Assembly (NCBI GenBank): GCA_964017235.1
Contig: OZ024928.1
Span: 151,056,881-151,120,880, forward strand
Source: Sabellastarte sp. h YS-2021
Taxonomy: Eukaryota; Annelida; Polychaeta; Sabellida; Sabellidae
DNA length: 64,000 nucleotides
Direction of reading: 5' to 3'
Numbering within the stretch: position 1 is the first letter of the stretch; each line of letters starts with the position of its first letter. The notes under the pieces were generated by a model, which worked only from the letters and a program-made list of their open reading frames with translations, was not told the origin of the DNA and did not search any database. Of this stretch, positions 18,451 through 58,869 are shown piece after piece. A program made the position numbers and the translations under genes.

Positions 18451-18695
18451 CTGCTTATGAAGAAAACAACCCACTGCTTTACTAATTTTTAATACTAAAC
18501 TTATAAAATACCATGTGGAGTAATTTTATTAAATATCTATAAATATAAGGAAAACTAAAACTGATAAACAAATATCCAACATAGAAAATAAATACTACTA
18601 GTTCATACAGCCACTACTTAAAAGAAGAAAATCTTACATGTATAAAAAAAACTAATACATTATTATTATAGAAGACTTTTATTGCGTTAATACAA

Positions 18696-18877
18696 CTTAC
18701 CTAGTGGACAGATGCATTTGTCCGGCGCTCTGCCGGTCACGCCAAACGTTAGAAAAAAACGTCCTGAGCTGGGCTCTGGCCGGGACCGGTAGTGTCCTGT
18801 TCACTCGCCAGGTGGCTGTACAGCCTACCTGCCGGTATACTGCGCATGCGTGCGCATGCGCTCTTCTTCTTTTTGTT
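18696..18877 (+). repeat. DIRS left inverted terminal repeat
   Basis: 182 bp that match the reverse complement of 25018-25199 with one mismatch seen (CTTCTTC versus CTTCCTC). It contains the NRF1-like palindromes and is the expected promoter region for the element transcript. The outermost 19 bp (18677-18695) differ from the right end, as in canonical DIRS ends. Confidence 0.92.
18841..18862 (+). promoter_or_regulatory. Paired NRF1-like palindromes in DIRS ITR
   Basis: Two adjacent TGCGCATGCG units (18841 and 18851) lie ~130 bp before the gag ATG. The second forms TGCGCATGCGC, the NRF1 core (known motif). They are also present in the right ITR. A role as promoter element is inferred. Confidence 0.5.
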
Positions 18878-18990
18878 TGGCGCGTGAGGATTCAAACGCT
18901 TGAAGTTTAAGAGAAACTATTTTAATTTTTTTATGTGTTTTACAAGTGAATTCTTGGTAAATTTGTAGTGAGTTATTGTCTTCATATGTC

Positions 18991-21198
18991 ATGGCATCCC
19001 CTGGAGATAAAAAAGGACAGAGGCGAGGCGTATGCGGTCATATTATGGCCTCTTTTGATTTGCACAAACGCTGTGCCAGATGCCGTGACAAGGGCATTGG
19101 GGATGATGACTGTGTTGCTAAGAAATCGTGTGTTATTTGTGATGGTTTCACGGATTCCCAGAAGGATATGCTAGCCACCCCTACATACAAGATACGCAAG
19201 GACAAAAAGGCGGGGGTTTTAGTGTCTCCGGATCAGGTAACAGTTATTGCGTCTGTTGAAGATACAGAGCCTGTTTTTCAACCATCTCCTTCTGCCTCTC
19301 ATCCCCCTGCGCATGCGCAGCCGGAGTCGTCAAGTTCTAGTTCTACTTTTGTGACCTCTGATCAATTCCAAAAGATGTCAGATCAATGGGCTGAACAATT
19401 CGCCCGTTTTGAGGCCTTACTCTCCAGGGGCAACGTTTTCTCTACCCCAAAATCTACTGTTCAGCATGTGCCTTCCCATGCTGCCATTTCAGACACTCCT
19501 TTTATTCCCCCTTCTGCCCGGCTCACCGGTCCGGTGGAGTTCCCGGCAGAAGGCGAGGGTGACAAACAACAGGCTAGTAAGAGTGTAGAAAGGGATGTTA
19601 AAGAACAAAAGAAGTCACGCAAATCCCGCAAGGACCATAAGGACGATAAACATTCAAAAAAGAGACAAGTTTCTCCCTCTCCTGATGTGGGCCCTCCTCA
19701 GGTTAAATCTGCACCGGTTCCAGCTAAGCCACCGGCTCAAACTCAAGTCTCCTCCGGTCCGGAGGTTGTGCAGAAGTTGACGTCTAAGCCTGCTCCACTT
19801 TCCTCTGTTGGTTCCGACCCGGAGCAGTCAGGTCTCTTTCTTCCCGGTGCAACCGGTCAAGGTTTTGCTCAACCCGGTTCATCCGGTCAAGTTCCTCCAG
19901 TAGATCACACTACGTCATCTCTCTTTGGTGATTCCTCTGTTTCAGATGCTTACCGGGCTCCACCGGAGCCGGATAATTTGGACATTGACCCTCCTCCTTC
20001 TGAAGCCAGTTTATCCGACGACCAGATTTCTGATGAGGGTGAGATATCTTCTGATACCTTGGACCGGCCTGAACAAACGGAGGATATGAATTACAGAGAG
20101 ACAGTTAGGTCCATCCGTTCCTTTATGGGATGGAATCATATCCCCACTTTTGAAAGCGACCTCAGTGAGCCTGATAAGAGTAATAACCCCTGGAAGGGGA
20201 AGCTGCCAAAGAGGCCTGCCCGCATCTCTGTAGCCATGCCACCGGACGACTGGCTTTGTCAGAAGTTAGAGAAGTTGAACACAGTGGTGGCGGAGGGGTA
20301 CCCTTCACGTTCCCAGGACTCGGCTGGACTAAAAAAGGATCAATTTGTCAAGGTACCGAAGTCGCAAAATAGATGGTACCAGATGCATATGATTAGACCA
20401 GAGGGGCCGCATAGGCCTGGAAAGACTTTATTTAGCTGGCACAACTCAGAGGCGAAGGTGAACTCTCAATTCCCTCGCATTGTCAAAGCTTCTGCTTACC
20501 CTGCCACCGGACCCCCTTCGCGCCCCATTTCACAGGAATATTTGCGTCGGTGGGAGAAGTGTGCCCGGGAGAATTCTTACATTGTGAATCATGCGGCAGG
20601 GTTTAACCGTTGCACCAGTGAGTTACAGGAACGCATGACCGGTCATGTCAACATGCTTCATGCTAGGCTTAACAAGGGCAAAGCCCCCAAGGAGGTATCC
20701 GCTGCTCTCTCAGACTTGAAGGACCTCTCTGCTTTTCACCAGAATGTTTCTGTGGCCATGGGCACTGCGCTCCAGCACCTAGCGGACAGTCTTTTTGTGC
20801 ACATGTCCAACTTGATTTTGCTGCGTAGGGATTCCTACCTTGATCACGTCAAAAACGGCATTAAACCTGATACCTATAACCAGTTGAGAAATGCTCCGTT
20901 ATTCGGACATGGACTTTTCCCTGATGCAGTTATCCGCACAGCGGAACAAGATATTGCCAGTCATCACTCCTCCGGTTCTGTTCCCAGACCCGGTCCGGGT
21001 GCTGCCCAACAGACCGGATGGAGATCTTCTCATAGATACCGTCCCTATGATAACAGAGACAGTAGGAATACCGGTACCGGAGATCAGGACCGTCAGGCTT
21101 GGAGGCAGTTTAGCCGGAATAGAGGTCGGGGTCATGGCAGAGGACGTGGTTCCAATCCCCGTTTCTCTAAATCGAGAGGTTACAAGCAATTTAAATGA
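18991..21198 (+). CDS. DIRS ORF1, Gag-like protein
   Basis: 735 codons from the ATG at 18991 (ATGG context; five upstream codons lack an ATG). The N-terminal region has a Cys/His cluster (HKRCARCRDK then CVICDGF) that may bind zinc. The middle is Pro/Ser-rich with a Lys-rich patch (KEQKKSRKSRKDHKDDKHSKK in overlapping parts). Around residues 365-450 lies a conserved segment (YRETVRSIRSFMGW, DDWLCQKLEKLN) that is shared with the decayed copies at 39790 and 59800. The C-terminus is Arg/Gly-rich (NRGRGHGRGRG), typical of nucleic-acid binding. It probably packages the element RNA. The gag stop is followed by TGACAATTA, conserved in all three DIRS copies. Confidence 0.88.
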   Translation: MASPGDKKGQRRGVCGHIMASFDLHKRCARCRDKGIGDDDCVAKKSCVICDGFTDSQKDMLATPTYKIRKDKKAGVLVSPDQVTVIASVEDTEPVFQPSPSASHPPAHAQPESSSSSSTFVTSDQFQKMSDQWAEQFARFEALLSRGNVFSTPKSTVQHVPSHAAISDTPFIPPSARLTGPVEFPAEGEGDKQQASKSVERDVKEQKKSRKSRKDHKDDKHSKKRQVSPSPDVGPPQVKSAPVPAKPPAQTQVSSGPEVVQKLTSKPAPLSSVGSDPEQSGLFLPGATGQGFAQPGSSGQVPPVDHTTSSLFGDSSVSDAYRAPPEPDNLDIDPPPSEASLSDDQISDEGEISSDTLDRPEQTEDMNYRETVRSIRSFMGWNHIPTFESDLSEPDKSNNPWKGKLPKRPARISVAMPPDDWLCQKLEKLNTVVAEGYPSRSQDSAGLKKDQFVKVPKSQNRWYQMHMIRPEGPHRPGKTLFSWHNSEAKVNSQFPRIVKASAYPATGPPSRPISQEYLRRWEKCARENSYIVNHAAGFNRCTSELQERMTGHVNMLHARLNKGKAPKEVSAALSDLKDLSAFHQNVSVAMGTALQHLADSLFVHMSNLILLRRDSYLDHVKNGIKPDTYNQLRNAPLFGHGLFPDAVIRTAEQDIASHHSSGSVPRPGPGAAQQTGWRSSHRYRPYDNRDSRNTGTGDQDRQAWRQFSRNRGRGHGRGRGSNPRFSKSRGYKQFK

Positions 21199-23557
21199 CA
21201 ATTACCTATTGTGTCCAACTCCCTCAACATCAGTAATAGCAAAGTTGGACAACAGGACCTTAGAAAAGACTGTAAACTCAGCAGTAATAGACAGTCCATG
21301 TTCAAAGACCTTTCATCAGACACCAGGTTTACCTTCTCAAAATGTGTCTTATCTTGCTGTAGATCATGTTCATTCTGTTTGTTTCCAAGGGCAACCGCAA
21401 AAGAAAGGTTTAAGTCCCTGTATACCAAAGAGAAAAATAAAAGATGTGAAAGGTGTTTTTTGTGCAAGTCAATGTCTTTTTGTCCCACATGTTCCAAATG
21501 TCCCCAATGTTGTCCCAAGTTTGGCTGTAGGGGGCAGACTGCAAAAGTTTTGGCAAGTTTGGCTCAGTCTGGGGGCGAATCCAAGGGTGGTCTCGATTTT
21601 ACAAGAGGGATACACGCTACCCTTCAAAATCAGACCACCTCTGACCCGATCCCCGGTGATCAAGAGTGGTTATGCTCACCCAGGCAAAAGCAAAGCCTTG
21701 TATCAGGCGGTAACGGACCTCATAAACAAGTTGGTAGTCGAAAAGGTGGTCATCAGATCCTCCCTGGCCTTTTACAACCGCCTCTTTCTGGTACCAAAAT
21801 CGAATCAGAGATGGAGACCTATCTTGGACCTCAGCCATCTAAATCTTTTCTTGAAACCACGCACCTTCAAAATGGAAACTCCGGAAACAATAAGGTTGTC
21901 CCTCCAAAAGGGGGAGTGGGTAACGTCGCTGGATTTCAGCGACGCTTATTTTCACATCCCCATCAGTCAGAGATCACGAAAGTATCTCAGGTTTTTTCTG
22001 GGAAAGAAAGCCTTTCAATTCACAGCCCTTCCTTTCGGGCTCGCCACAGCTCCACTGGAATTCACCAAGGTAGTCAAGGAGGTGAAACTGATGGCTCAGG
22101 CACGGGGTATCCGGATCCACCAGTACCTCGACGACTGGTTAGTCAGAGCCCCGGACCAGGAAACTTGCCAGTCACATACCCAGACCCTTTTGGCCCTGTG
22201 CCGCGAATTAGGGTGGGTGGTAAACATGGAGAAATCGGAACTTACGCCTCAACAGGTTTTCAATTTCGTAGGTTACCGGTTCGACCTGCTGTCCGGTCGG
22301 GTGTTGCCCACTCAGGACAGATGGATCACTCTTCAGCAGAAACTACGGTTCATCAAAGGCAGGGACTGTTGTTCAGTCCGTCAGTTCATGTCCCTAATCG
22401 GGCTACTTACTGCCAGGGAAAAACAAGTATGGGCCGGCCGGCTTCACATGAGACCGGTTCAGTGGCATCTAAAAAGACACTGGCATGTGCCGGAGAGCCT
22501 GGAGAAGATTATTCCGGTTCCCCTTTCTCTTCACCCACACCTGGATTGGTGGTTGGACGAGACCAATGTGCTAAAAGGGCAACCCTTGCATCCTCTTCAG
22601 CACGCCCTACAGATTTTTACAGACGCCTCAAACGAAGGCTGGGGCGCACACTTAGGGGGATCCATAGCAAGAGGCGTTTGGTCAGAACCAGAAAGTCGCC
22701 TCCACATCAATTTCTTGGAACTCAAAGCAGTTCTTCTGGCTCTCAAGAGTTTCGAGAAGCAGTGCAGGGGACAGATTGTTCTCATAGCAACCGACAACAC
22801 GACTGTAATGTCATACATCAACAAAGAGGGCGGTATGAGATCAGGGTCTCTCTGTGCCCTACTTTGGAGGCTCCTATCCTGGTGTCATCCCAGGAAGATA
22901 ATTCTGCGGGCCAGACACATTCCGGGTCGCTTGAATGTCGTAGCAGACAAGCTGTCCCGGCACAATCAGGTGATCCAGACCGAGTGGTGCCTGTCTCAAC
23001 AGGTGTTCAATCGCTTGTGCTTCAACTGGGGCCAGCCTCAGATAGATCTTTTTGCCACCCGATTCAATCACAAGCTTCCCAAGTTTGTCTCTCCAGTTCC
23101 GGACTCGACAGCTTGGGCGGTGGATGCTCTCAGCCTACCATGGAGCAACCTGGACGTGTACGCTTTTCCTCCAGTCTCCCTGCTCAGTCAGGTCACATCC
23201 AAACTGGTGAATCAGGGCTTTCACAGAATGATCTTAATCGCTCCGGGTTGGCCCAACATGCCTTGGTTTTGGGACCTGATCAGTCTCTCAAGTCAGATTC
23301 CCTTCAGTCTTCCCTTGGAGAGGACCCTGTTGACTCAACCGTTCAACGGCCTTCTCCACAGGAACTTGAATCATCTGAATCTGCATGCTTGGCTCCTAGA
23401 GCCTCGTCCATCAGGCGACAAGGGTTTTCTGAGGAGGTGGCAGCAAGAATTGAAGCTCCTCAGAGAAGTTCAACCAGAGCGGTCTATAAGTCAAAGTGGG
23501 CCATTTTTGTTAAGTGGTGCGACTCCAACCAGGTGGACTTCAGGGCGCCCTCTCTGA
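20891..23557 (+). CDS. DIRS ORF2: reverse transcriptase, RNase H, methyltransferase-like
   Basis: 888-codon frame; the first ~100 codons overlap ORF1 and may not be translated. RT spans roughly residues 230-480 with ILDLSHLN, TSLDFSDAYFHI (first catalytic Asp), ALPFGLATAP and YLDD at residues 412-415 (bases 22124-22135). RNase H follows with FTDASNEGWGA (Asp at residue 578), FLELKAV, ATDNTTV and the AD of NVVADKLSR. After this comes DLFATRFN..PGWPNMPWFWDL, the conserved segment that many DIRS elements carry and that is annotated as a DAM-like methyltransferase. It copies element RNA to DNA. All key residues are present. Gag may be bypassed by reinitiation or frameshifting; the mechanism is not visible. 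Confidence 0.9.
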   Translation: MLRYSDMDFSLMQLSAQRNKILPVITPPVLFPDPVRVLPNRPDGDLLIDTVPMITETVGIPVPEIRTVRLGGSLAGIEVGVMAEDVVPIPVSLNREVTSNLNDNYLLCPTPSTSVIAKLDNRTLEKTVNSAVIDSPCSKTFHQTPGLPSQNVSYLAVDHVHSVCFQGQPQKKGLSPCIPKRKIKDVKGVFCASQCLFVPHVPNVPNVVPSLAVGGRLQKFWQVWLSLGANPRVVSILQEGYTLPFKIRPPLTRSPVIKSGYAHPGKSKALYQAVTDLINKLVVEKVVIRSSLAFYNRLFLVPKSNQRWRPILDLSHLNLFLKPRTFKMETPETIRLSLQKGEWVTSLDFSDAYFHIPISQRSRKYLRFFLGKKAFQFTALPFGLATAPLEFTKVVKEVKLMAQARGIRIHQYLDDWLVRAPDQETCQSHTQTLLALCRELGWVVNMEKSELTPQQVFNFVGYRFDLLSGRVLPTQDRWITLQQKLRFIKGRDCCSVRQFMSLIGLLTAREKQVWAGRLHMRPVQWHLKRHWHVPESLEKIIPVPLSLHPHLDWWLDETNVLKGQPLHPLQHALQIFTDASNEGWGAHLGGSIARGVWSEPESRLHINFLELKAVLLALKSFEKQCRGQIVLIATDNTTVMSYINKEGGMRSGSLCALLWRLLSWCHPRKIILRARHIPGRLNVVADKLSRHNQVIQTEWCLSQQVFNRLCFNWGQPQIDLFATRFNHKLPKFVSPVPDSTAWAVDALSLPWSNLDVYAFPPVSLLSQVTSKLVNQGFHRMILIAPGWPNMPWFWDLISLSSQIPFSLPLERTLLTQPFNGLLHRNLNHLNLHAWLLEPRPSGDKGFLRRWQQELKLLREVQPERSISQSGPFLLSGATPTRWTSGRPL

Positions 23558-24465
23558 AACAGGTGGCCGATTTTTTGTTGTATCTCTTTAAGGAGAGACA
23601 GTTACAACCCAGTACTATAGAAGGCTACAGAACGGCTATTGCCGATATGGTGGGTAACGACCCGGTTCATTTTGGCAAGGATGAAAGCTTGACTCGCTTG
23701 CTGGACAGTTTCCATAGAGACAAGCCGAAAGGCAGGAGGGGAGTCCCTGCGTGGAACCTTTCATTAGTGCTCCACCAGTTGACCAAAGCTCCTTTCGAAC
23801 CCATGCGGAAGGCCTCTCTTAAACATTTGACCTTTAAGGCGGTTTTCCTATTGGCTTTGGGTTCTGGCAAAAGGCGGAGCGAAATCCATGCATGGTTATA
23901 CCGCAACATCAGGCATCAGGAGAACTGGAGTCAGGTCTCCCTATATCCCTCTCCCAGTTTTCTATCGAAGAATCAGCTAGCGCGGGACGGACCGTCTGCT
24001 GTGGCACCGGTTGTCATTCCCGCGTTGGCTCCATCATTGGACAGGTCCCTCAAAGAGGACAAGTCTCTTTGCCCGGTCAGGGCCTTGCGTTACTATTTAG
24101 ACAGAACCAAGGACTTGCGCTCGGGCAAAGACCTGGTGTTTGTGTCTTTCCGGAAGAGTTTTCAGAAGGACATTGTTCCGGCTACTGTCTCTTCCTGGAT
24201 CAAGCAAACTGTGTTGTTGTGTTATCAGCTCTCCGATCATGAGGCTCAAACTATACATCAAGTTCGAGCTCATGATGTGCGGGCCTTTGCCGCATCCAAA
24301 GCCTTTCAGGGCGGGGTTTCCTTGGACCAGATCCTATCAGCTTGCCATTGGAAGGCCCACAACACTTTTACACAATTTTACCTGAAGGACCTAGCCTGGG
24401 CAGATTCAGAGTTGTACCACCTAGGTCCTGTGGTAGCTGCTCAACAGATCCACGAACATCAGTGA
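21211..24465 (+). CDS. DIRS ORF3: tyrosine recombinase, long overlap with ORF2
   Basis: 1084-codon open frame with no ATG at its very start (GTG at 21211; the real initiation site is unknown). It overlaps ORF2 for about 2.35 kb. An N-terminal Cys-rich block at residues ~50-110 (CCRSCSFC, CERCFLC, FCPTCSKCPQCC) is conserved in the copy at 58309-58854. The recombinase occupies about residue 740 to the end: KSKWAIFVKWC, catalytic Arg in KRRSE (888/889), HDVR (His1021, Arg1024), CHW (His1046) and Tyr1057 in TQFY. It integrates the circular DNA product by recombination. The frame equals that of ORF1, which ends 13 bases upstream. ORF3 is the best candidate for integrase function here. Confidence 0.88.
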   Translation: MSNSLNISNSKVGQQDLRKDCKLSSNRQSMFKDLSSDTRFTFSKCVLSCCRSCSFCLFPRATAKERFKSLYTKEKNKRCERCFLCKSMSFCPTCSKCPQCCPKFGCRGQTAKVLASLAQSGGESKGGLDFTRGIHATLQNQTTSDPIPGDQEWLCSPRQKQSLVSGGNGPHKQVGSRKGGHQILPGLLQPPLSGTKIESEMETYLGPQPSKSFLETTHLQNGNSGNNKVVPPKGGVGNVAGFQRRLFSHPHQSEITKVSQVFSGKESLSIHSPSFRARHSSTGIHQGSQGGETDGSGTGYPDPPVPRRLVSQSPGPGNLPVTYPDPFGPVPRIRVGGKHGEIGTYASTGFQFRRLPVRPAVRSGVAHSGQMDHSSAETTVHQRQGLLFSPSVHVPNRATYCQGKTSMGRPASHETGSVASKKTLACAGEPGEDYSGSPFSSPTPGLVVGRDQCAKRATLASSSARPTDFYRRLKRRLGRTLRGIHSKRRLVRTRKSPPHQFLGTQSSSSGSQEFREAVQGTDCSHSNRQHDCNVIHQQRGRYEIRVSLCPTLEAPILVSSQEDNSAGQTHSGSLECRSRQAVPAQSGDPDRVVPVSTGVQSLVLQLGPASDRSFCHPIQSQASQVCLSSSGLDSLGGGCSQPTMEQPGRVRFSSSLPAQSGHIQTGESGLSQNDLNRSGLAQHALVLGPDQSLKSDSLQSSLGEDPVDSTVQRPSPQELESSESACLAPRASSIRRQGFSEEVAARIEAPQRSSTRAVYKSKWAIFVKWCDSNQVDFRAPSLKQVADFLLYLFKERQLQPSTIEGYRTAIADMVGNDPVHFGKDESLTRLLDSFHRDKPKGRRGVPAWNLSLVLHQLTKAPFEPMRKASLKHLTFKAVFLLALGSGKRRSEIHAWLYRNIRHQENWSQVSLYPSPSFLSKNQLARDGPSAVAPVVIPALAPSLDRSLKEDKSLCPVRALRYYLDRTKDLRSGKDLVFVSFRKSFQKDIVPATVSSWIKQTVLLCYQLSDHEAQTIHQVRAHDVRAFAASKAFQGGVSLDQILSACHWKAHNTFTQFYLKDLAWADSELYHLGPVVAAQQIHEHQ

Positions 24466-24518
24466 TAGTCTTATTGCTGACTGTATATAGTGTACACATG
24501 TTTTTTTTGGGTTAGTGT

Positions 24519-24551
24519 ATATAATAAAATAAAAAAAAAAAAAAAAAAAAA
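24519..24551 (+). other. DIRS internal AATAAA and oligo-A tract
   Basis: AATAAA-type signals run directly into a ~23-nt A tract 60 bp after the ORF3 stop, well before the ICR. It may be a poly(A) signal or a relic of priming; its length may also be a sequencing-sensitive homopolymer. Confidence 0.6.
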
Positions 24552-24862
24552 ACCTCCACTATCCTTTGCTTCTGGATTGCCATGATCCAAAGTGGATCCA
24601 GGAGCTTCTCAAGGATGGTGTTTCTTGCTCCTGTTCTTCTTCCTCATTCATGAATTTGTTAGTTCATGCCCTCTTAGCCTTCCTGCACCTTCGGCTCGAA
24701 TTGGTGTACGGGCTGTTTCCTCTTAGGAAAGATCAGGGGGGGGCAAGGGTGTTTGGTCCTTTAAAGGTTGGTTTATTTAACCAGTACCGGACACACCCGT
24801 TATACTATTGTCTATATGGGTTCCCCTTGTTTGGCTACCCCCCATCCAATGGGTAGTCATTC

Positions 24863-24959
24863 TGCATCTGTCCACTAGGTAAGTTGTATTAACGCAATAA
24901 AATGGAAAATTTAATAGTAAATTAAATTTTTATAAGTTAATACCTTACCTAGTGGACAG
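24863..24959 (+). repeat. DIRS internal complementary region (ICR)
   Basis: Bases 24863-24902 are the exact reverse complement of the left outer end (18677-18716). Bases 24897-24959 are the exact reverse complement of the right outer end (25184-25246). The two halves share ATAAAA (24897-24902), the complement of the TTTTAT at both termini. This is the template for joining ends in DIRS replication (known model). Confidence 0.93.
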
Positions 24960-25017
24960 GGGGAGTCCCACCCTACCTTCCCCGCTATCATAACCAACAA
25001 GGGGTCTTAAGGTAGAC

Positions 25018-25199
25018 AACAAAAAGAGGAAGAGCGCATGCGCACGCATGCGCAGTATACCGGCAGGTAGGCTGTACAGCCACCTGGCGAGTGAACAGGA
25101 CACTACCGGTCCCGGCCAGAGCCCAGCTCAGGACGTTTTTTTCTAACGTTTGGCGTGACCGGCAGAGCGCCGGACAAATGCATCTGTCCACTAGGTAAG
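25018..25199 (-). repeat. DIRS right inverted terminal repeat
   Basis: Reverse complement of 18696-18877 with one mismatch seen. It is followed by the right-specific outer end to 25246, which terminates in TTTTAT. Confidence 0.92.
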
Positions 25200-25544
25200 G
25201 TATTAACTTATAAAAATTTAATTTACTATTAAATTTTCCATTTTATACTATTTGCAAGCAACATTTACACAATACAAACTAAATGCATCTTCTGTGGTTT
25301 TTATGCATGTAGAGGTAATGAATAAACAGAATGGTGCTGTTGACTACAAAGCTCCAAATGTATGTGGGTCTCACCACAAGTTGTAAAGATTCTATCATGG
25401 ATAGTACTACCCAAAGATTTTCACAATTTTGCATAGGTTCAAATAATACTAGGCTCAAAGGTGCACCTTGTGTGGAATAATCTAGATATAAATTCACTGC
25501 ACTGATTACATATGTTGAAATACTAAATGTTAAAAATAGCATCA

Positions 25545-27384: not shown

Positions 27385-28775
27385 ATAGCATCAGAGATGC
27401 CCATACCCCACAGCCTAGGGAAATATATTTAACACCACAAGATATAGAAGTACTGTATCAGTACAAAGTTCAGGATACTTTCAGAGCACTGTCAGTTATA
27501 TCAAGGTCAAAGTAATGTTTAAATAGAGAAAATAATGTCTAAGAGAAAGATAATGCATGTAAAGATGAAGTATTAAAACAAGACAATTTAATAACAAGAT
27601 GACAGCATTAATCAGTAAACTAAACATTACGACACTCTTTATCTACATATGGCATGGTCGAATTATGGTTTGGATGTTTTGAATATTACCATGCATACAG
27701 AAGTGGTAATACATTCAATGAATGCTTATGTGTGGTGTTGGAGCAAAATCTATGGCTCACTTGATGAAATTCCATCTGTTACAATGGGAAATTATAAAAG
27801 TAAAATTCTTAATGAATTCTAATATGACTTCAGTGCTTAATCTGCATCAAAAGACAGACCCAAAGGTGCAACAAGATTTTAAAGGTCATGGTCACTACAG
27901 CAAGGTCAGAGGTCAAATCAAGGTCACACCATGATGCTGCACACCTACAACCCCTAACCAATGTCCCTACCAAGCATCAACTTCCTACACCTTACGGCTT
28001 CCGAGATATAGCCTGGATATGATTTTATAGGTCAAGGTCACTATAGCAAGGTCAAAGGTCAAATCAAGGTCAGACCATGACATTGCACACCTACACCCCC
28101 TAACCAATGTCCCTACCAAGTATCAACTTCCTATACCTTACGGTTTCCGAGATATAGCCCGGAAAAGATTTTATAGGTCAAGGTCACTACGGCAAGGTCA
28201 AAGGTCAAACCAAGGTCAGACCATGATGTTGCAGACCTACACCCCCTAACTAATGTCCCTACCAAGTATCAACTTCCGACACCTTACGTTTTCTGAGATA
28301 TAGCCCAGACAAGATTTTCAAACTCAAGGTCACTACGGTAAGGTTAAATCAAGGTCAGACCATGACACTGCACACCTACACATCCTAACCAATGTCCCTA
28401 CCAAGTATCAACTTCCTACACCTTACGGTTTCTGAGATACAGCCTAGACAAACATTTCCCGCCGCCCGCCTCCCCACCCATCCCAACACCATGGGTGAAA
28501 ACAATACCCTGACAGCCCTTAAGGGCTGTGGGGTAAAAAGGCCTAAAAATGGTCTCGATGAGGTACTTTGGCAGTCTGTGGATGACCTTCAATGAAGAGC
28601 TTCAAGATCAAATTTCTGCCTGCTTACAGAGGACATATATTTGTATTGTACATACCAGCCATAGGATGATCTAACTTTCTGTATATGAGAACTGGGCCAA
28701 AATGTGAAAAAAATGGCCAAAATCTGAACTTTAAGAGGCCACCAGTGACCTTGAAATTGAAGGTCCGGGGATACA
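27385..28775 (+). mobile_element. Pearl-like element, copy 2
   Basis: Left end AAAAATAGCATCAGAGATGCC with TACCCCACAGCC at about 27405, a left module to 27880 (including ACAGACCCAAAGGTGCAACAAG) and four family B monomers. The right end is GCCCTTAAGGGCTGTGGGGTA at 28518, plus an extension to TCCGGGGATA (28766). It is the inverted partner of copy 1. Confidence 0.8.
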
Positions 28776-28904
28776 ATTATGAAGCTGTAAAAATTATTTA
28801 TCAGAGAATAGGAGTCAATGAAAATAGTACAATTATGTAAACATACATATAATAATCAGCTGCAGCAATCCATGCATCTTTGCGATAAGGGAAATATATC
28901 TAAA

Positions 28905-30066
28905 ATATGGCAGGTGAACATATTTTGGTCACAGCATGATGTTGCACACCTACAACCCTCAACCAATGTCCCTAACAAGTATCAACTTTCTACACCTTAT
29001 GGTTTCCAGGATATAGCCTGGACAAGATTTTATAGGTCAAGGTCACTACTTCAAGGTCAAAGGTCAATTCAAGGTCACAGCATGACGTTACACACCAACA
29101 ACCCCCGACCAATGTCCCTACCTAGTATCAACTTCCTATACCTTACAGTTTCCGAGATATAGTCCAGGCAAGATTTTATAGGTCAAGGTCACTACGGCAA
29201 GGTCAAAGATTAAATGAAGTTCACACCATGACGTTGCACACCTACAACCTAAATCAAATGTCCCCACCAGGTATCAACTTCCTATACCTTACAGTTTCCA
29301 AGATAAAGCCTGGACAAGATTTTATAGGTCAAGGTCACTACAGCACGGTCAAAGGTCCAATCAAGGTCACACCATGACACTGCACACCTACACCCTTTAA
29401 CCAATGTCCCTACCAAATAACAACTTCTACACCTTACGGTTTCCCAGATAAAGCCCAGACAAAATTTATAGGTCAAGTCACTTCGGCAAGGTCAAAGGTC
29501 AAATCAAGGTCAGACCATGACGTTGCACACCTACACCCACTAACCAATGTCCTCACCAAGTAACAACTTCCTACACCTTATGGTTTCCAAGATATAGCCT
29601 GGACAAGATTTTATAGGTCAAGGTCACTACGGCAAGGTCAAATCAAGGTCAAACCATGACATTGCACACCTACAACCCCCTACTGTCCCTACAAAGTATC
29701 AACTTCCTACACCTTACAGTTGACGAGATATAGCCCGGACAAGATTTTAAATGCCAAGGTCACTTAGGCAAGGTCAAATCAAGGTCACAACATGACGCTG
29801 CACACCTACACCCCTTAACCGATGTCCCTACAAAGTATCATCTTCCTACACCTTACAGTTGCTAAGATACAGACCCGACAAGATTTTTAAACTCTAGGTC
29901 ACTGGGGCAAGGTCACTGGTCAAATCAAGGTCACACCATGACGTTGCACACCTACACCCCTTAACCAATGTCCTTACCAAGAATCAACTTTTTCCTGCCG
30001 CCCACCCACCCACCCATCGGGGCATAATGGGTGAAAACAATACCCCGACAGTCCTTTAGGGCTGTA
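28905..30066 (+). mobile_element. Pearl-like element, copy 3 (no left module)
   Basis: About seven family B monomers followed by the right end (CACCCATCGG, CAATACCCCGACAG, GCTGTAGGGTAAAAA). The left module is missing. Confidence 0.75.
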
Positions 30067-30267
30067 GGGTAAAAATTAATATTTGTTCCAATGCAGTAGC
30101 ACCTCTTTTAATAGAAGCATGTTGGGAAAGTTGAACTTGTAATGAGTCTACAGAAAGCTAAAATACAAGACATTTGCTTAAACCGTCCTAATTAAATAAC
30201 TAGGAAACAGAATATTGTATAACAGAGTTTTTACTGTTTTTTGTTGAGATAGATTCCAATTAGTGAA

Positions 30268-30418
30268 CTAGCTTTCTTCAAAGCTGTCATCAAGGGGAAT
30301 GACTTGAGGAGAGAGATCATCCATGGCATCCTCTAAAATCTCTATGGTGCGATCTGAATTTGCCGTAGAAGCTGGTCGACTTCCTGATATGGATCCCATG
30401 TACTTGTCCATTGTTTGC
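30268..30418 (-). CDS. Gene 3, candidate terminal exon
   Basis: Acceptor TTTTAGTTCAG, then one base completing a codon and 49 codons to TAG (30268-30270). The encoded tail QTMDKYMGSISGSRPASTAN continues into an acidic end (EILEDAMDD..PLDDSFEES). Composition is strongly protein-like for a C-terminus. The exon at 36368-36435 ends in a phase that does not join directly, so at least one exon is missing or the assignment is wrong. No family is recognised. Confidence 0.4.
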
Positions 30419-30910
30419 CTGAACTAAAATACAAATATGTGTATTTAAAAACATTTTTCTTATCCATTTATTCCGGTTTAAGATACCCTTTGACACGACT
30501 TGATCCGTCACTTTAAGAAATTCAATTCAAGAGAATTTGCATTTTATTTTGTTACGATATTGCAATGACAGGCATTGAGAAGTTAATGCCAAGACCTCCT
30601 CCCAAGACTAACGAGATGCACTCAGAGAGAGCAAAACGCTCGACTCCATGTGACCAGTCTCTAAAGTGATATAAAGTATTGTTAAGGAAGGCAATAAAAT
30701 AAAACCAAACATGTAAATTAATTTTTAAAGAAATATCAAGTAGAAAGCCAAAAAATACATTGAAATGGGACCTCTGAAAATTCTTGAATTTTTGTATCCA
30801 AAATAAGATCCAGATCTTTCTTTTAGTAACTTCTTCCGTCGGCCAGGTCCTAACCAAAAAAATTTGTTAATAAAGATCTGTTTATTAATTCTTGAGTAAT
30901 CTAAACACCA
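30419..30910. other. Spacer with decayed repeat
   Basis: AT-rich. The part at 30740-30900 resembles 7200-7390. The segment 30560-30660 looks like a dispersed-repeat fragment. No exon is supported. Confidence 0.35.
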
Positions 30911-30914
30911 AAAA

Positions 30915-32746
30915 ATAGCATCAGAGATGCCCGTACCCCACAGCCTGGGGAAATATTTTTCAACACCATGAAACATAGAACTAGTGTAACAGTACAAAGT
31001 TCAAGATACTTTCAGAGCAGTGTAAGTTATATTAAGGTCCAAATAATGCTTAAGTAGAGAAAATAATATCTAAGGAAAAGAAATGTATATAAAGATGAAG
31101 TATTAAAACAAGACAATTCAATAATAAAATGACAGCATTTATCAGTAACCCAAAAATGGCCGAATTATGGTTTGGATGTTTTGAATATTACCCATGCATA
31201 CAGAAGTGGCAATACATTCAATGAATGCTTATGTGTGGTGTTGGAGAAAAGCCTGTGGCTCACTTGATGAAATTCCATCTGTTACAATGGGAACTTGCAA
31301 AAGGAAATTCTTAATGAATTCTAATATGACTTTAACAGTGCTTAATCTGCATCAACAGACAGACCCAAAGGTGCAACAAGATTTTAAAGGTTAATACAGC
31401 AAGGTCAAAGGTCAATCAGTGTTACACCATGACGTAGCACACCTAAAACCATCAACCAATGTCCCTACCAAGTATAAACTTCCTACACCTTACAGTCTCT
31501 GAGATATAGCCTGGACAAGATTTTATAGATCAAGGTCGCTACAGCAAGGTCAAATCAAGGTCACATGACATAGCACACCTACACCCCCTAACCAATGTCC
31601 CTAACAAGTATCAACTTCCTACACCTCTTACTGTTTCCAAGATATAGCCCAGACCAGGTATTATACGTCAAGTTCACTATGGCAAGTACAAAGGTCAAAT
31701 CAAGGTCACACCATGACGTTGCACACCTACTACCCCCAACCAATGTCCCTACCAAGTATCAACTTCCTACACCTTACAGTTGCTGAGATATAGCCCGGAC
31801 CAGGTTTTATAGGTCAAGGTCACTACGGCAAGGTCAAAGGTCCAATCAAGGTCACACCATGACGTTGCACACCTACAACTCCTAACCAATGTTCGTACCA
31901 AGTATCAACTTCCTACACCTTACGGTTTCCGAGATATAGCCCGGACAAGATTTTATAGGTCAAGGTCACTACAGCAAGGTCAAAGGTCAAATCAAGGTCA
32001 GACCATGACGTTGCACACCTTCACCCCCTAACCAATGTCCCTACCAAGTATCAACTTCCTACACCTTACGGTTTCTGAGATATAGCCCGGACAAGATTTT
32101 AAAGGTCAAGGTCACTACAGCAAGGTCAAAGGTCAAATCAAGGTCACACCATGACGTTGCACACCTGCAACCCCTAACTAATGTCCCTGCAAAGTATCAA
32201 CTTCCTACACCTTATGGTTGCCGAGATATAGCCCGGACAAGATTTTCAAACTCAAGGTCACTACGGCAAGGTCAAATCAAGGTCAGACCATGACGTTGCA
32301 CACCTTCACCCCCTAACCAATGTCCCTACCAAGTATCAACTTCCTACACCTTACGGTTTCTGAGATATAGCCCGGACAAGATTTTAAAGGTCAAGGTCAC
32401 TACAGCAAGGTCAAAGGTCAAATCAAGGTCACACCATGACGTTGCACACCTGCAACCCCTAACTAATGTCCCTGCAAAGTATCAACTTCCTACACCTTAT
32501 GGTTGCCGAGATATAGCCCGGACAAGATTTTCAAACTCAAGGTCACTACGGCAAGGTCAAATCAAGGTCAGACTATGACGTTGCACACCTACAACCCCCA
32601 ACCAATATCCCTGCCAAGTATGAACTTCCTACACCTTACGGTTTCTGAGATACAGCCCGGACAAACTATTTCCCACCACCCGCCTACCCATCCGGACACC
32701 ATGGGTGAAAACAATACCCCGACAGCCCTTAAGGGTTGTGGGGTAA
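30915..32746 (+). mobile_element. Pearl-like element, copy 4 (complete, dimeric higher-order array)
   Basis: Left end AAATAGCATCAGAGATGCC with TACCCCACAGCC at 30934, a left module to 31390, about nine family B monomers, and a right end at 32700-32746 with AGCCCTTAAGGGTTGTGGGGTA. Monomers alternate between 146 and 139 bp. The 285-bp dimer starting near 31997 is repeated almost identically from 32282. A hAT MITE interrupts the last bases. Confidence 0.85.
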
Positions 32747-36719: not shown

Positions 36720-38592
36720 AAGAAAAATAGCATCAGAGATGCCTGTACCCCGCAGCCTGGGGAAATAGTTTTCAATACTATGAGATATAGAAGTAGTGAA
36801 ACAGTACACAGATTGGGATACTTTCAGAGCAGTGTCAGTGTCCAAATAATGTTAAAGTAGAGAAAATAACATCTAAGAGAAAGAAACTGCATGTAAAGAT
36901 TAAGTATTAAAACAAGACAATTCAATAAACTAAAAATTATGAAGCTTTAAGACTTCTCCCATTTTGATATTCATTTGTATGGTCGAATGATCGTTTGAAT
37001 GTTTTGAATATTACCCATACATACAGATGTGGCAATACATGCTTTTATGTGGAGTTGGGGCAAACCTGTGGCTCACTTGATGCAATACCATCTGTTACAA
37101 TGGGAAGTTGCAAAAGTAAAACCCTTAATGAATTCTAATATGACTTTAACAGTACTTAATCTACATCAAAACACACTCAAAGGTGCAACAACCAAGATTC
37201 AATTAAAAAGATATAAGAAAGATATAAGAGAGATAAAATAGTATCAGATATCCCCGTAGAGAGATAAAATAGATATGCAGAGATATGATATCAGATATGC
37301 AAGATCAAAGGTCAAATCTAGGTCACACCATGACATTGCACACATATAACCCCGGACCAATGTCCCTACCAATTATCAACTTCCTACACCTTATGGTTTC
37401 CGATATATATCCCAGACAAGATTTTATAGGTCAAGGTCACTACGGCAAGGTCAAATCAAGGTCACAAATTTTACATCTACACACCCTAGCCAATGTCCCT
37501 ACACAATATCAACTTCCTACACCTTATGGTTGCCGAGATATAGCCCGGACAAGATTTTATAGGTCAAGGTCACTACGGCAAGGTCAAATCAAGGTCACAA
37601 CATGATGTTGCACACCTACACCCTCTAACCATTGTCCCTACCAAGTATAAACTTCCTACACCTTACAGTTGCCAAGATATAGCCCGGACAAGATTTTATA
37701 GGTCAAGGTCACTACGGCAAGGTCAAAGGTCAAATCAAGGTCACACCATTACGTTGCACACCTACACCTCCTAACCAATGTCCCTACCACATATCAACTT
37801 CGTACACCTTACGGTCGCCGATATATATCCCAGACAAGATTTTATAGGTCAAGGTCATTACGGCAAGGTCAAATCAAGGTCACAACATGATGTTGCACAC
37901 CTACACCCCCTAACCATTGTCCCTACATAATATCAACTTCCTACACCTTATGGTTGCCGAGATATAGCCCGGACAAGATTTTATAGGTCAAGGTCACTAC
38001 GGCAAGGTCAAATCAAGGTCACAACATGATGTTGCACACCTACACCCCCTAACCATTGTCCCTACCAAGTATAAACTTCCTACACCTTACGGTTGCCGAG
38101 ATATAGCTCGGACAAGATTTTATAGGTCAAGGTCACTACGGCAAGGTCAAAGGTCAAATCAAGGTCACATCATTATGTTGCACACCTACACCCCCTGACC
38201 AATGTCCCTACCATGTATCAACTTCGTACACCTTACAGTCTCCGAGATATAGTCCGGACAAGATTTTATAGGTCAAGGTCACTACGGAAAGGTCAAATCA
38301 AGGTCACACCATGACGTTGCACACCTATGTCCCTAGCAAGTATCAACTTCCTACACCTTACAGTTTCCGAGATATGGTCCGGACAAGATTTTCAAACTCA
38401 GGTCACTCTGGCAAGATTAAAGGTGAAATATAGGTCACACCATGACATTGCACACCTACACCCCACTAACCAATGTCCCTACCAAGTATGAACTTCCTCC
38501 ACCTTATGGTTTCTGAGATACAGGCTGGACAAACTTTCCCACCAGCCGCCTACCCATCCGGACACCATTGGTGAAAGCAATAGAAACCAAAA
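36720..38592 (+). mobile_element. Pearl-like element, copy 5 (right end truncated)
   Basis: Left end AAAAATAGCATCAGAGATGCC, left module fragments to 37195, a degenerate stretch with AGATATAAGAGAGATA repeats (37200-37290), and then about nine family B monomers to 38520. The right module stops at 38580 (GGTGAAAGCAATAG), where a DIRS copy begins. Confidence 0.75.
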
Positions 38593-38898
38593 TGTTATTG
38601 CGTTAATACATCTTATCCAATGGGCAATTGCTTTACCGGTCGGCGCGACTGGTCCAGCCAAATGCCAGAAAAAAACGTCCTGTATATACTATCCGCAGGA
38701 CAGGTCACGGAGTGTGCATTCCCCAGGTGTCGCCTCATACTTCCTTCCTATCTAGACAGCGTGATGTCACAGCATCTTTTTCGTTTGGCGCGTGGAGTGA
38801 GCAGACATGTTTTCAACAGAGAGACTTTTTTGAAGTTTCAACCATTTATTGAACTTTTAACTATTTCTACATAATTCTGCTATTTAACTGATCATCAT

Positions 38899-40821
38899 GT
38901 CATCCCCATGACTGAAAAGAGGCACTTGTGGCCACGTTATGGCTGTGTTCGATGGTCACCTCAAGTGTGTGAGATGTAGAGACAATGGGGGTTGGAGAAG
39001 ATCCTTGTGTCTTGAAGAAGGATTGCTAAATATGTAAGGCGTTTTCCCCAGAGCTGTTACTACAACTAGCCACCCCCACCTACAGGGACAGAAAGAATCG
39101 AGGTAAGAAGACAGTTTCTGCCTCCCCTACCCTCACTCTTGTGGACCCTTCACAAGTCAGTGTGTTGGAGACGGAGAGAAGACTGTTAAGAAGCCTGAAA
39201 CCACCCCTGCTGGGAAGAAGAAGCTTTTTGATGACTCTCCCAAACCTAAACCTTCTGAAGAGTTTAGATTATAAGTGGGCTGAACGCTTTGCAAGGCTTG
39301 AAGCTATGTTGCTTGCAAAGTCATTTGAAGTTCCTGTTGAACCGGTGGTGAAGTCTGCTGGGGTTATCACCAGTCAGAAGCCCTTCTTTGACTCTGGTGC
39401 CGGTGCCAGCCAATCTACTTCCGGTGGGGTCTCACATGTGACTGGTACCGGTCCCAGCCCTGTTCAGGCCACCGGAGAAGTTGCTGTGATGAAAGCTACC
39501 CAGCCTGTTGAGGCTCCCGGTACTAGTAGGGGAAATGTGATCCACAAGAATGTCACCCAGCCTGTTGAGGCTCCCGGCGCAGGTCCTGAAGTTCTGCTTT
39601 CCGGTACTGGTAGTGAAACTGCACAGTTGGACCAGTCACTTACCGGTGGAAATCTTCCTGATGTTACCGGTGCACCTGAGAGTGAGGAAGATATGCAGAG
39701 TGAACCGGGCACCTACTGCTGGCAACTTCTGGGACGGCTCACCAGACAGACAAGATCACACAGCTGACCAGGATCTCTCTGAAGAAGCCAATTACAGTGA
39801 GACTATCAGAGGAGTCAGGTCATTCATGGGCTGGCGTCAGATACCTGATTTCGACAGTGCTTCATCTTCCTTAGATGACGATCCATTTGCGGTTCCTGAG
39901 ACAAGCCCACCGGGAAAGTGTCAGTGAAACTACCGGTAGATGAATGGCTGTGTTGGAAGTTTGAGAAGTTAAACCTCACTGTGTCTGAAAGCTACCCTTC
40001 AAGAAATACAGAGACTGGTGGTCTGCTTAGAGACCAGTTTGTGAAGACACCCAGGCTTTCCAAATGGTACAAGATGCACACAGATAAGAAGGACTCTGAT
40101 AAATCTACTGTGTGTTCCTGGTCTCCAGAACCGGCAAAGCTGAAAAGTGTATTCAGCAGGGTAGCCAGACGTTCTTTACCCTCTGCCCCAGATTCCCGTA
40201 CTATCAGCCGGGACACCTAAAGACATTGGGAGTGTTCTTTTAGAGGCAGCAGGACTATGAAGATGTCTTACCAAAGTACAGGACTTGGTTAAACACTCAA
40301 AGACACTGCGTACTGACAGGGGGCAAGGCATCAGAGAAAATGCAGCAAGCTGCTGAAGACCTGGAGTATTTGGTGACCTTTAACCAGTCCATCTCCCAGG
40401 CCATGCAACGTAACACGCAGGACTTGTCTGAAGGCGTTTTAACCAGCATGGCTAACCTCACTCTGGCACGTAGAGACAGCTACCCGAAGTATTTACATGG
40501 TGGGGTGAAGCAAGATACCCTCACTGACTGCGTAATGCACTGGTCCACTTGACATCACTGTTCCCTGATCAGCTGCTAGTTAAAGCAGAAGACAAGATTT
40601 CCCGTAGTGAAGAGAAGCGTTCTTCTGGCAGCTCACACAGGAAGACCGGTTGCTTTAACCCGTATGCTTCCCCATCTTCAAAGCCTGCACATCAACTGGA
40701 CCGGAAGTCCACTGTACCTGCTTGGAAGCTGATCCGGGACCGGCAACAGGGAAAGAAAGGATGGGGCAAGCCCTCTAATTTTCAACAAAAACTGGCTGAG
40801 GGTTCCAAGCAGAGTAAATGA
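38899..40821 (+). pseudogene. DIRS gag pseudogene, copy 2
   Basis: Gag relatives occur in broken frames: a start-like ATGTCATCCCCATGA stop, a Ser/Pro/Gly-rich middle (39141-39767), SETIRGVRSFMGW (about 39800-39840), DEWLCWKFEKLNLTVSE (39940-39990) and NQSISQAMQRNTQDLSEG (about 40385-40440). It ends QSK-stop at 40819-40821 followed by CAATTAG. At least three frameshifts or stops are present, so it is non-functional. Confidence 0.8.
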
Positions 40822-41025
40822 CAATTAGTGTGTTACTGGACTGTCGCTTGGGGCGTTTGGGCGACCCAGTCCTCCTCCAAGGCAGGGGGGGGTTTTGTTG
40901 TTTGTTGGGACTGAGCTGGGTACCAGACTATCTTCAGGTTTTCACACAAGAAACCCTGAAGTGGGGTTTTCTGTGGTCGCCAATAGAAACGCTATAACAA
41001 AGTCATCTCATTGGTTGGGCATTTT

Positions 41026-41475
41026 TCATTCCAGACAGAATGGTCCCTTCACCCAGAGGTCTCCCAAGCCATATGCTCCCAGTGGTACCAGCCCCAAGTG
41101 GACTTGTTTGCCACCAGGTTCAACAAACTGCCAGTTTGTGTTATAGGTTCCAGACCCCCAGGCATGGGCAGTGGATGCACTCAGTCTGTCCTGGTAAGAC
41201 CTGGACCCATGGAGCCTTCCCATCAGCTGCCATCTTGGGCAAAATGGTGAAGTTACAGGACTACCCATGAAACAGAAGCATACTGATTGCACCAGGGTGG
41301 CCCAATATGCCCTGGTTTTGGGACCTAGTGTCCAGTCAGATCCCACTGTGCCTGCCCAATCTGGTGACTCAACCATTCAACCAGACCCTGCACAGGAACC
41401 TGTCAAACTTGAACCTACATGCCTGGCTCCTAGAGCCACAGCAATCAAGCAGCAGGGCTTCTCTGAGGCAACTCC
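41026..41475 (+). pseudogene. DIRS methyltransferase-like fragment, copy 2
   Basis: EWSLHPE, VDLFATRFN, then (after frameshifts) VTQPFNQTLHRNLSNLNLHA and WLLEPQQS match the C-terminal part of ORF2. RT and RNase H are missing between 40830 and 41020. It is truncated at the family B junction. Confidence 0.75.
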
Positions 41476-47700: not shown

Positions 47701-47896
47701 AGGTCAAATCAAGGTCAGACCATGACGTTGCACACCTACACCCCCCAACCAATGTCCCTGCCAAGTATGAACTTCCTACACCTTACGGTTTCTGAGATAC
47801 AGCCCGGACAAACTATTTCCCGCCGCTCGCCCGCCCATCCGGACACCATGGGTGAAAACAATACCCCGACAGCCCTTAAGGGCTGTGGGGTAAAAA
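44720..47896 (+). mobile_element. Pearl-like element, copy 7, carrying a nested insertion
   Basis: Left end ATAGCATCAGAGATGCC with TACCCCACAGCC at 44745-44756. The left module is interrupted at 44941-46702 and continues to 46960. Then come about six family B monomers and a right end with GCCCTTAAGGGC and GGCTGTGGGGTA (47881-47892), which is the exact inverted repeat of the left motif. It is the clearest complete copy. Confidence 0.88.
44941..46702 (-). mobile_element. Helitron-like insertion with family C array
   Basis: 1,762-bp block inserted in the pearl left module. The uninterrupted site is visible at 31121-31140 (AATAATAAAATGACAGC), and insertion is between A and T without duplication (one placement). 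On the - strand it starts TTGTATCCACCGG with a GGTGGATA hairpin partner and ends in CTAG followed by T. It holds ~147-bp monomers (anchors 45311, 45458, 45605, 45752, 45899, 46043, 46190) and CGGCCATCTTG modules. A CTAG 3' end and A/T insertion are Helitron traits (known). Confidence 0.75.
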
Positions 47897-58854: not shown

Positions 58855-58869
58855 CCCACACAGTAATTG

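What the first reader, a model, noticed from the sequence alone, without database searches (positions are those of the whole stretch)
18677..25246. Complete, apparently recent DIRS retrotransposon with intact ITR/ICR geometry
The sequence shows ITRs of 182 bp with one difference, an ICR that is the exact complement of 40 bp of the left end plus 63 bp of the right end, and three long open frames with YLDD, the RNase H acidic residues and R/H..R/H/Y recombinase residues. This is the full set needed by the known DIRS life cycle, so the copy may be active. Full-length intact copies are uncommon compared with decayed ones.
Basis: partly seen in the sequence, partly recalled or inferred. Interest (0 to 1): 0.85.

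Follow-up and report, generated by a model that had tools for sequence, protein, structure and literature searches.

The report
Recent DIRS element with readthrough-type gag stop
This is a complete, recently copied DIRS jumping gene, and its sequence suggests that its DNA-joining enzyme is made by ribosomes ignoring a stop signal and reading through another gene in a different frame.

Summary
In detail: window 18677-25240 is a complete DIRS retrotransposon with 182-bp inverted repeats, a matching internal complementary region (ICR), and gag, RT/RNase H/MT-like and tyrosine recombinase (YR) frames. The right end is 25240, not 25246; the last 6 bp are target DNA. Fifteen copies, this one included, differ by 7-36 substitutions in about 6.55 kb, and 7 of the 15 keep all three frames. 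Forty perfect uninserted paralogues of two insertion sites show blunt insertion at x|NTT without target duplication.

Gag and YR share one frame, separated by UGA-CAAUUA, which fits the CARYYA readthrough hexamer and is kept in a second, 69%-identical family and most decayed relatives. The YR frame crosses RT-MT with 0 stops, where synonymous shuffles give 27.4±3.9 (second family 0 versus 18.4±3.3; under a stricter null 13.2 and 8.7). A Cys-rich stretch lies between stop and pol core.

I infer that YR is made by stop-codon readthrough as Gag-Cys-spacer-YR, which would explain the long ORF overlap reported in half of 28 annotated DIRS1-like elements. RNA and protein evidence is lacking, and only one genome was tested.

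The parts
18677..25240 (+). DIRS retrotransposon, 6564 bp, blunt ends TTTTATTGCG...TTTTCCA
   Evidence: 22 left ends and 36 right ends of copies compared; uninserted sites
18696..18877 (+). left ITR, 182 nt
   Evidence: one mismatch to the right ITR at 18867
18991..21198 (+). gag frame (frame 1), first ATG 18991, stop TGA 21196-21198
   Evidence: no Pfam match; similar frames at window 38.9-40.8k (+) and 59.9-59.0k (-)
21196..21204 (+). gag stop plus hexamer TGA-CAATTA, fits UGA-CARYYA readthrough motif
   Evidence: motif description in PMC4132726 (passages)
21331..21560 (+). Cys-rich stretch in frame 1 (CCRSCSFC..CERCFLC..FCPTCSKCPQCC), conserved between families; begins about 45 codons after the stop here, within a few codons in family B
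   Evidence: frame-1 wobble divergence within the family
21561..23400 (+). part of frame 1 crossing RT-RH-MT: free of stops, no detectable constraint on its residues (inferred translated spacer)
20888..23557 (+). pol open frame (frame 2, +1 relative to gag): RT about 21791-22282, RNase H about 22604-22825, MT-like about 22976-23212 (weak match)
23386..24465 (+). tyrosine recombinase at the end of frame 1; AHDVR at about 24268-24282, putative catalytic Tyr about 24379
24523..24552 (+). AATAAA followed by an A-rich run, between the YR stop and the ICR; length varies among copies
24863..24959 (+). internal complementary region: left part 24863-24902, right part 24903-24959; encodes the circle junction CCA|TTTTAT
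25018..25199 (+). right ITR, 182 nt
25200..25240 (+). right extension outside the ITR
25241..25243 (+). target NTT (here TTT), host DNA not element

Best explanation
This is a young full-length DIRS retrotransposon. Shown: its structure, its group of near-identical copies, blunt insertion between x and NTT, and matching changes of termini and ICR. Inferred: it is copied through RNA, its ends are rebuilt on the ICR, and a circle is integrated by the YR. Most likely expression route: ribosomes make Gag and usually stop at UGA. A fraction reads UGA-CAAUUA as sense and continues in frame through the Cys-rich stretch and about 600 codons of pol's alternative frame to the YR, giving a Gag-Cys-spacer-YR protein. 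Pol, in the +1 frame and without an ATG between the gag stop and the RT core in this copy, is probably reached by a +1 shift at or before the same UGA. Shown: same frame, conserved motif, conserved Cys-rich stretch, avoidance of stops. Inferred: readthrough itself, its efficiency, any later cleavage, and the +1 shift.
For: DIRS structure. Recent copies. Uninserted sites: joined flanks of L011 and L014 match 17 and 23 places, each 100% over 180 of 180 bp (40 of 2459 candidates scored); those of L016 match 40 places at 96-99% (4 fetched).

Stops in the YR frame across RT-MT: this copy 0 in 607 codons against shuffle mean 27.4, sd 3.9, minimum 14 in 5000 shuffles; L043 of family B 0 in 595 against 18.4, sd 3.3, minimum 7. 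The remaining frame lies near expectation (37 vs 35.2; 45 vs 40.4). A stricter null that also holds the first base of the next codon gives 13.2±2.7 (minimum 3) and 8.7±2.3 (minimum 2) in 3000 shuffles. Wobble T before AA/AG/GA, which would make a stop: 0 of 137 and 0 of 142; before other purine-first codons 20 of 169 and 23 of 172; in gag, as control, 51 of 168.

Frame-1 first codon positions inside pol diverge between families as fast as wobble sites in the YR (0.55-0.65 vs 0.55): stops are avoided while residues drift.

Gag stop: of 43 loci examined, 36 show the homologous gag end; 35 of 36 keep TGA and 32 of 36 fit CARYYA. This copy against L046: 1 of 11 aligned bases differs at 21196-21207, against 143 of 272 upstream and 66 of 100 downstream. 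L043 has no ATG in that frame before codon 597. CARYYA after UGA gave about 15% readthrough in an OPRL1 reporter (PMC4132726, passages).
Against: No RNA, ribosome or protein data. One genome only; no relatives found in viral contigs or genome contigs. Only two families were intact enough for the shuffle test, and of family B only L043 was shuffled.

A control misbehaves: in the YR-only region a frame that should be unconstrained has 8 stops against 17.5±2.8 or 14.9±2.2 (fraction 0.0007 in both), so some stop-lowering codon context exists without a known reason; it falls short of the zeros seen in pol. Wobble T is also rarer before all purine-first codons of pol (about 12-13%) than before pyrimidine-first ones (33% and 19%).

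In this family the first 44 codons after the stop show no frame-1 constraint (wobble-class divergences 0.36/0.32/0.25 and 0.25/0.27/0.25). In the Cys-rich stretch the frame-1 wobble excess is clear within the family (0.15/0.03/0.01; 0.14/0.03/0.06) but not between families (0.36/0.25/0.32; B43-L048 0.28/0.30/0.21; B43-L049 0.21/0.20/0.19).

The stop context also encodes pol-frame residues (NDNY), which could add to its conservation. The search pattern contained the motif, so that count is not blind; four junctions (L039, L041, L056, L068) break the hexamer and one (L034) has lost the stop. This copy has an ATG at frame-1 codon 34, so initiation there is not excluded. No consistent RNA structure follows the stop. 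In the decayed in-window relative frame 1 carries 13 and 5 stops over two pol matches, pol itself 4 and 7, the third frame 33 and 18.
Confidence: 0.65

Rival explanations
1. The YR is translated by internal or non-AUG initiation, or by reinitiation after the gag stop, in the long frame; gag and YR sharing a frame is incidental.
For: This copy has a frame-1 ATG at codon 34 after the stop, before the Cys-rich stretch, and the codons before it look unconstrained. The gag stop overlaps an ATGA in a third frame.
Against: L043 of family B has no frame-1 ATG until codon 597 of 1081, although its Cys-rich stretch begins within a few codons of the stop. Reinitiation does not predict conservation of CAAUUA.
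Confidence: 0.17
2. The YR is expressed from a spliced or shorter mRNA and the open frame across pol is left over or accidental.
For: Spliced or shorter RNAs were not tested. Overlap of pol and YR frames is already known in DIRS elements (PMC3266345, sections 3 and 10). A stop deficit of unknown cause also appears in one control frame.
Against: A spliced-out or untranslated frame has no reason to lack stops altogether: 0 vs 27.4 and 0 vs 18.4 expected, or 0 vs 13.2 and 0 vs 8.7 under the stricter null, in two families whose pol wobble sites differ at 55-65%.
Confidence: 0.1
3. The conserved UGA-CAAUUA serves only a +1 frameshift into pol, and the YR frame is entered in some other way.
For: Skipping the T of TGA gives GAC AAT TAC, exactly the pol frame. 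UGA-C is a weak terminator at which +1 shifting and readthrough compete (PMC9841425, passages). The pol frame has no ATG between the gag stop and the RT core in this copy.
Against: It leaves the lack of stops in the YR frame and the frame-0 Cys-rich stretch unexplained. The pol frame is also open for about 300 nt upstream, so a shift need not occur at the stop; that openness is uninformative (expected stops 0.0 and 1.5). L043 does have a pol-frame ATG between its gag stop and the RT core.
Confidence: 0.15

Closest known systems
DIRS1-like retrotransposons (Piednoel et al. 2011, PMC3266345; abstract, sections 3, 9 and 10 read, plus word finds)
   Same: ITRs, two overlapping ICRs, right extension, NTT start and end, gag/YR/pol(RT-RH-MT) frames, no target duplication. 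Long pol-YR overlap is reported in half of 28 annotated elements.
   Different: Here the YR frame begins directly at the gag stop, carries a Cys-rich stretch, and is shown to avoid stops. The words zinc, cysteine and stop codon were not found in that paper's main text. At 6564 bp it is longer than the 28 listed there (3974-6283 bp).
Dictyostelium DIRS-1 (review PMC5633606, passages)
   Same: Three partly overlapping ORFs, circle intermediate, reported insertion into existing copies of itself; L071, L072 and L024 here are head-to-tail junctions.
   Different: That passage describes no apparent sequence preference; here NTT is preferred (T at 35 of 36 in each of the last two positions).
CARYYA readthrough signals, first known from TMV (PMC4132726, passages)
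   Same: Stop codon followed by CARYYA with a long in-frame extension.
   Different: That paper describes the type as mostly UAG-CARYYA in diverse plant viruses; here it is UGA in a retrotransposon, with the extension overprinted on pol. Works like these signals; not a member of a virus family.
Retroelements with a gag stop before pol, such as Tca2 (PMC2194720, search listing and start of abstract only)
   Same: UGA separating gag from the next frame.
   Different: Here the in-frame extension leads to the recombinase, not to pol.

Membership tests
DIRS1-like retrotransposon | Inverted terminal repeats | tested here: met
   182 nt, 1 mismatch
DIRS1-like retrotransposon | ICR complementary to both ends with overlapping circle junction | tested here: met
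   Exact in this copy; exact in 17 of 18 copies in which an ICR was found (not found in L028), and right-end changes in L023 and L025 are matched by their own ICR
DIRS1-like retrotransposon | RT and RNase H | tested here: met
   RVT_1 E=3.7e-22; RT_RNaseH E=2.2e-4, below its curated cut-off
DIRS1-like retrotransposon | Dam-like methyltransferase region after RNase H | tested here: inconclusive
   Dam E=0.15 only; region conserved between families
DIRS1-like retrotransposon | Tyrosine recombinase with catalytic residues | tested here: met
   Phage_int_SAM_1 E=4.1e-5 (above cut-off), Phage_integrase E=2.4e-4 (below cut-off); H..R and Y align with Cre only at E=1.3; AlphaFold model unusable, pLDDT 33
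DIRS1-like retrotransposon | No target site duplication, insertion at a site resembling the circle core | tested here: met
   40 perfect uninserted places for two insertions, 40 near-perfect for a third; the first core base need not match the circle
DIRS1-like retrotransposon | RNA intermediate and circular DNA | not testable with these tools
   needs RNA or extrachromosomal DNA
CARYYA-type stop codon readthrough | Stop followed by CARYYA | tested here: met
   TGA CAATTA; 32 of 36 homologous junctions fit the hexamer, 35 of 36 keep TGA
CARYYA-type stop codon readthrough | Conserved in-frame coding extension | tested here: met
   Cys-rich stretch then YR in the gag frame in families A and B; but the first 44 codons after the stop are unconstrained in family A
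CARYYA-type stop codon readthrough | Measured readthrough product | not testable with these tools
   needs reporter or peptides

The most novel reading that the evidence does not exclude
One UGA splits ribosomes three ways: stop gives Gag, a +1 shift gives Gag-Pol, readthrough gives Gag-YR. About 600 codons of pol's second frame are kept open purely as a translated, functionally neutral spacer. This would be the general reason for the long pol-YR overlaps seen across DIRS elements.
Probability: 0.3. Interest if true: 0.8.

Novelty: new variant of a known kind. Interest (0 to 1): 0.62.

Why it matters
How DIRS elements express their recombinase from overlapping frames is not explained in the passages I could read. 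The stop avoidance suggests that the overlapping frame is translated, not leftover, and the CARYYA context names a specific, cheap test. It would add a recoding strategy to retrotransposons and explain a structural oddity noted in half of 28 annotated DIRS1-like elements. The copies also give a direct picture of DIRS integration: blunt, at x|NTT, with the circle's base kept on the left and the target's on the right.

Tried and rejected
Rejected: TTTTAT as a 6-bp junction core; other copies share only about NTT. Rejected: a third ORF that is only a recombinase; the frame starts at the gag stop. Rejected as a general feature: base changes beside the insertion. L016 differs at -3 and -2 from the four fetched uninserted sites, but L011 and L014 match 180 of 180 bp. 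Considered: the internal A-run as a sign of an old polyadenylated chimera. An A-run was found in 17 of 19 aligned copies (the sequence anchor was missing in L016 and L028) and an A-rich run in the three family-B copies printed, so it is old; origin unknown. No useful result: AlphaFold models of YR and Cys-rich stretch (pLDDT 33 and 45), so no fold search was run; PDB search of the Cys-rich stretch; RNA folding after the stop; searches for relatives in IMG/VR and prokaryote genomes. The host was not identified. Dropped rows: L024 and L027 were left out of the full-length alignment (L024 matches only its first 1.5 kb in one piece; no right end was found in L027).

A stricter shuffle null was added. 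I lowered the main confidence from 0.68 to 0.65 because of the misbehaving control frame and the unconstrained first 44 codons. The script ended in an error after the results cited; the rest ran.

Papers: PMC3266345 abstract and sections 3, 9, 10 and word finds; passages only of PMC9210276, PMC4132726, PMC2685390, PMC3783388, PMC5633606, PMC6681497, PMC9841425; a find in PMC4157794 failed and it was seen only as a listing; all other papers only as search listings. Statements that something was not found in print rest on searches only.
Full report
WHAT IS THERE. The window is G000:C2:151056881-151120880 of an unnamed 1.786-Gb, 647-contig assembly. At 18677-25240 lies a DIRS retrotransposon. The 182-nt ITRs differ at one base. 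The ICR complements both ends exactly. RT, RNase H and tyrosine recombinase match Pfam models, RNase H and one of the recombinase models below their cut-offs; the methyltransferase region matches Dam only weakly (E=0.15).

COPIES AND AGE. The first 1324 bp matched 41 places; only 40 of 2622 candidates were scored, and 15 places, this copy included, are at 99-100%. Twenty other copies were fetched; 18 of them and this copy could be aligned over full length. Among the 15 closest, pairwise differences are 7-36 substitutions in about 6.55 kb; this copy's nearest relative differs by 8. Seven of the 15 keep gag (745 codons), pol (889) and YR frame (1088) at full length; the other eight have at least one frame broken or shortened. 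An older copy, L023 (123 substitutions from this one), also has all three open. Genome-wide, 243 left ends and 891 right ends fit the patterns within 3 mismatches; the left count is too low because its pattern included 5 flank letters. This is a recent burst within an older population. I did not convert it to years.

ENDS AND INTEGRATION. All 22 left ends seen read x|TTTTATTGCG. In 36 right ends the sequence after ...TTTTCCA (TTTTCTA in L025 and L028) is N (T15, A11, G9, C1), then T in 35 of 36, then T in 35 of 36; 17 of the 36 were picked by an exact match to the end, so the CCA itself is by construction there. Joined flanks of L011 and L014 match 17 and 23 uninserted places perfectly over 180 bp, and those of L016 match 40 places at 96-99%. 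Insertion therefore adds TTTTA...CCA exactly between x and NTT, with nothing lost or duplicated. In L011 the target base is A: it stays on the right, while the left carries the circle's T. The same polarity holds in all 13 of 19 copies with both ends whose first target base is not T; two of these, L017 and L021, are collapsed nests whose two ends come from different insertions. This fits strand exchange at a fixed point with the same strand's information kept at both joints; that step is inference. Two of three fetched candidates, L071 and L072, are head-to-tail joints CCA|TTTTATTGCG between a right end and a left end, and L024 is a third, so existing left ends serve as targets.

ICR AS TEMPLATE. 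Of 18 copies in which an ICR was found, 17 match both their own ends exactly; L025 has one mismatch in the left part. Where the right end has changed (L023, L025), the copy's own ICR carries the same change. This is what the established DIRS model, in which the ICR rebuilds the termini, predicts.

THE OVERLAPPING FRAME. Gag is in frame 1 and ends in TGA at 21196-21198. The same frame is then open for 1088 codons to the YR stop, across the whole of pol in frame 2. Synonymous shuffling of pol shows that this is not chance: RT-MT has 0 stops in frame 1 against 27.4±3.9 (minimum 14 in 5000 shuffles), while the third frame is as expected (37 vs 35.2). A second family (L043-L047; 69% identical to this one, 96-99% among themselves) has the same layout: gag, stop, then an open frame of 1080 codons in 4 of the 5 fetched copies (968 in L046). 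L043 gives 0 against 18.4±3.3 (minimum 7), third frame 45 vs 40.4. By my count about 50 of the 150 scored hits to the Cys-rich stretch lie in open frames of 1070-1080 codons (14694 candidates, 150 scored).

CONTROLS ON THE STOP TEST. A stricter null that keeps the first base of the next codon lowers the expectation to 13.2±2.7 (minimum 3 in 3000) and 8.7±2.3 (minimum 2); the observed zeros still lie outside it. Wobble T that would make a frame-1 stop occurs 0 of 137 and 0 of 142 times in pol, against 20 of 169 and 23 of 172 before other purine-first codons, and 51 of 168 in gag. Against this, one control frame in the YR-only region also has fewer stops than expected (8 vs 17.5 or 14.9; fraction 0.0006-0.0007), for which I have no explanation; it is a reduction, not an absence. 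The gag control is normal (51 vs 56.6 and 54.4).

WHAT IS UNDER SELECTION. Divergence by codon position between the two families: across RT, RNase H and MT the pol wobble, which is the first codon position of frame 1, differs at 0.55-0.65, as much as the wobble sites of the YR (0.55). So residues of the frame-1 product there drift freely while stops are avoided. Within the family the Cys-rich stretch changes mainly at frame-1 wobble sites (0.15 vs 0.03 and 0.01; 0.14 vs 0.03 and 0.06). Between families this is not seen (0.36, 0.25, 0.32), perhaps because pol's N-terminus is also coded there. The 44 codons between the stop and the Cys-rich stretch look unconstrained in this family (0.36/0.32/0.25 and 0.25/0.27/0.25).

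THE STOP CONTEXT. Here it reads AAA TGA CAATTA. Family B has CAATTA (L046) or CAATCA (the other four); the in-window relative has CAATTA. Of 43 loci examined, 36 show the homologous gag end; 35 keep TGA (L034 does not) and 32 fit CARYYA. The four exceptions are L039, L041, L056 and L068. The remaining seven loci gave no hit or only a spurious one. The pattern held the motif, so this count is not blind. An independent look is the alignment of this copy with L046: 1 of 11 bases differs at 21196-21207, against 143 of 272 in the gag end and 66 of 100 just downstream. L043 has no frame-1 ATG for 596 codons after the stop, yet its Cys-rich stretch begins almost at once. CARYYA is a known readthrough stimulator and gave about 15% after UGA in an OPRL1 reporter (PMC4132726, passages).

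READING. The simplest account is stop-codon readthrough giving Gag-Cys-spacer-YR. It explains the shared frame, the hexamer, the Cys-rich extension and the stop-free passage together. Splicing or a short YR mRNA would not need a stop-free spacer. Pol lies +1 to gag and lacks an ATG between the stop and the RT core in this copy (L043 has one); a +1 shift at UGA would enter its frame exactly, but this is less well supported.

LIMITS. One genome, two intact families, no RNA or protein. Structure models failed. No DIRS paper in my searches was seen to mention readthrough, but the library lacks most subscription papers on DIRS, including the founding ones.

Noticed in passing
window 38595-41471 (+) and 55671-59930 (-): Two further, decayed DIRS elements of other families (gag 31-64%, pol 46-60% amino-acid identity in the matched pieces).
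   Followed up: partly
L017 and L021: Copies inserted into another copy of the same element whose remaining half was not found beside them; fits nesting followed by recombination between the two copies, or an assembly collapse.
   Followed up: partly
L071 (C2:56644000-56644700), L072, L024: Head-to-tail junctions identical to the circle junction: DIRS copies joined to the end of another DIRS.
   Followed up: partly
window 24523-24552: AATAAA plus a genome-encoded A-rich run of variable length between the YR stop and the ICR; an A-run is seen in 17 of 19 aligned copies; origin and role unknown.
   Followed up: partly
L016 left flank: Two bases (-3 and -2) beside the insertion differ from all four fetched uninserted paralogues although nearly everything else matches (177-179 of 181).
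   Followed up: partly
window 23560-24462: One unused frame of the YR-only region has about half the stops expected from synonymous shuffles (8 vs 14.9-17.5); cause unknown.
   Followed up: partly
window 2853-4024, 27873-32664, 37308-38532, 45014-47811, 63192-63861: Large arrays of about 139-147-bp tandem repeats across the window.
   Followed up: no
window 54036-54989 (-): A 317-codon serine/proline-rich open frame beginning MIDLTESDDEDMPEAIP; possibly an exon of a host gene; no Pfam match.
   Followed up: no
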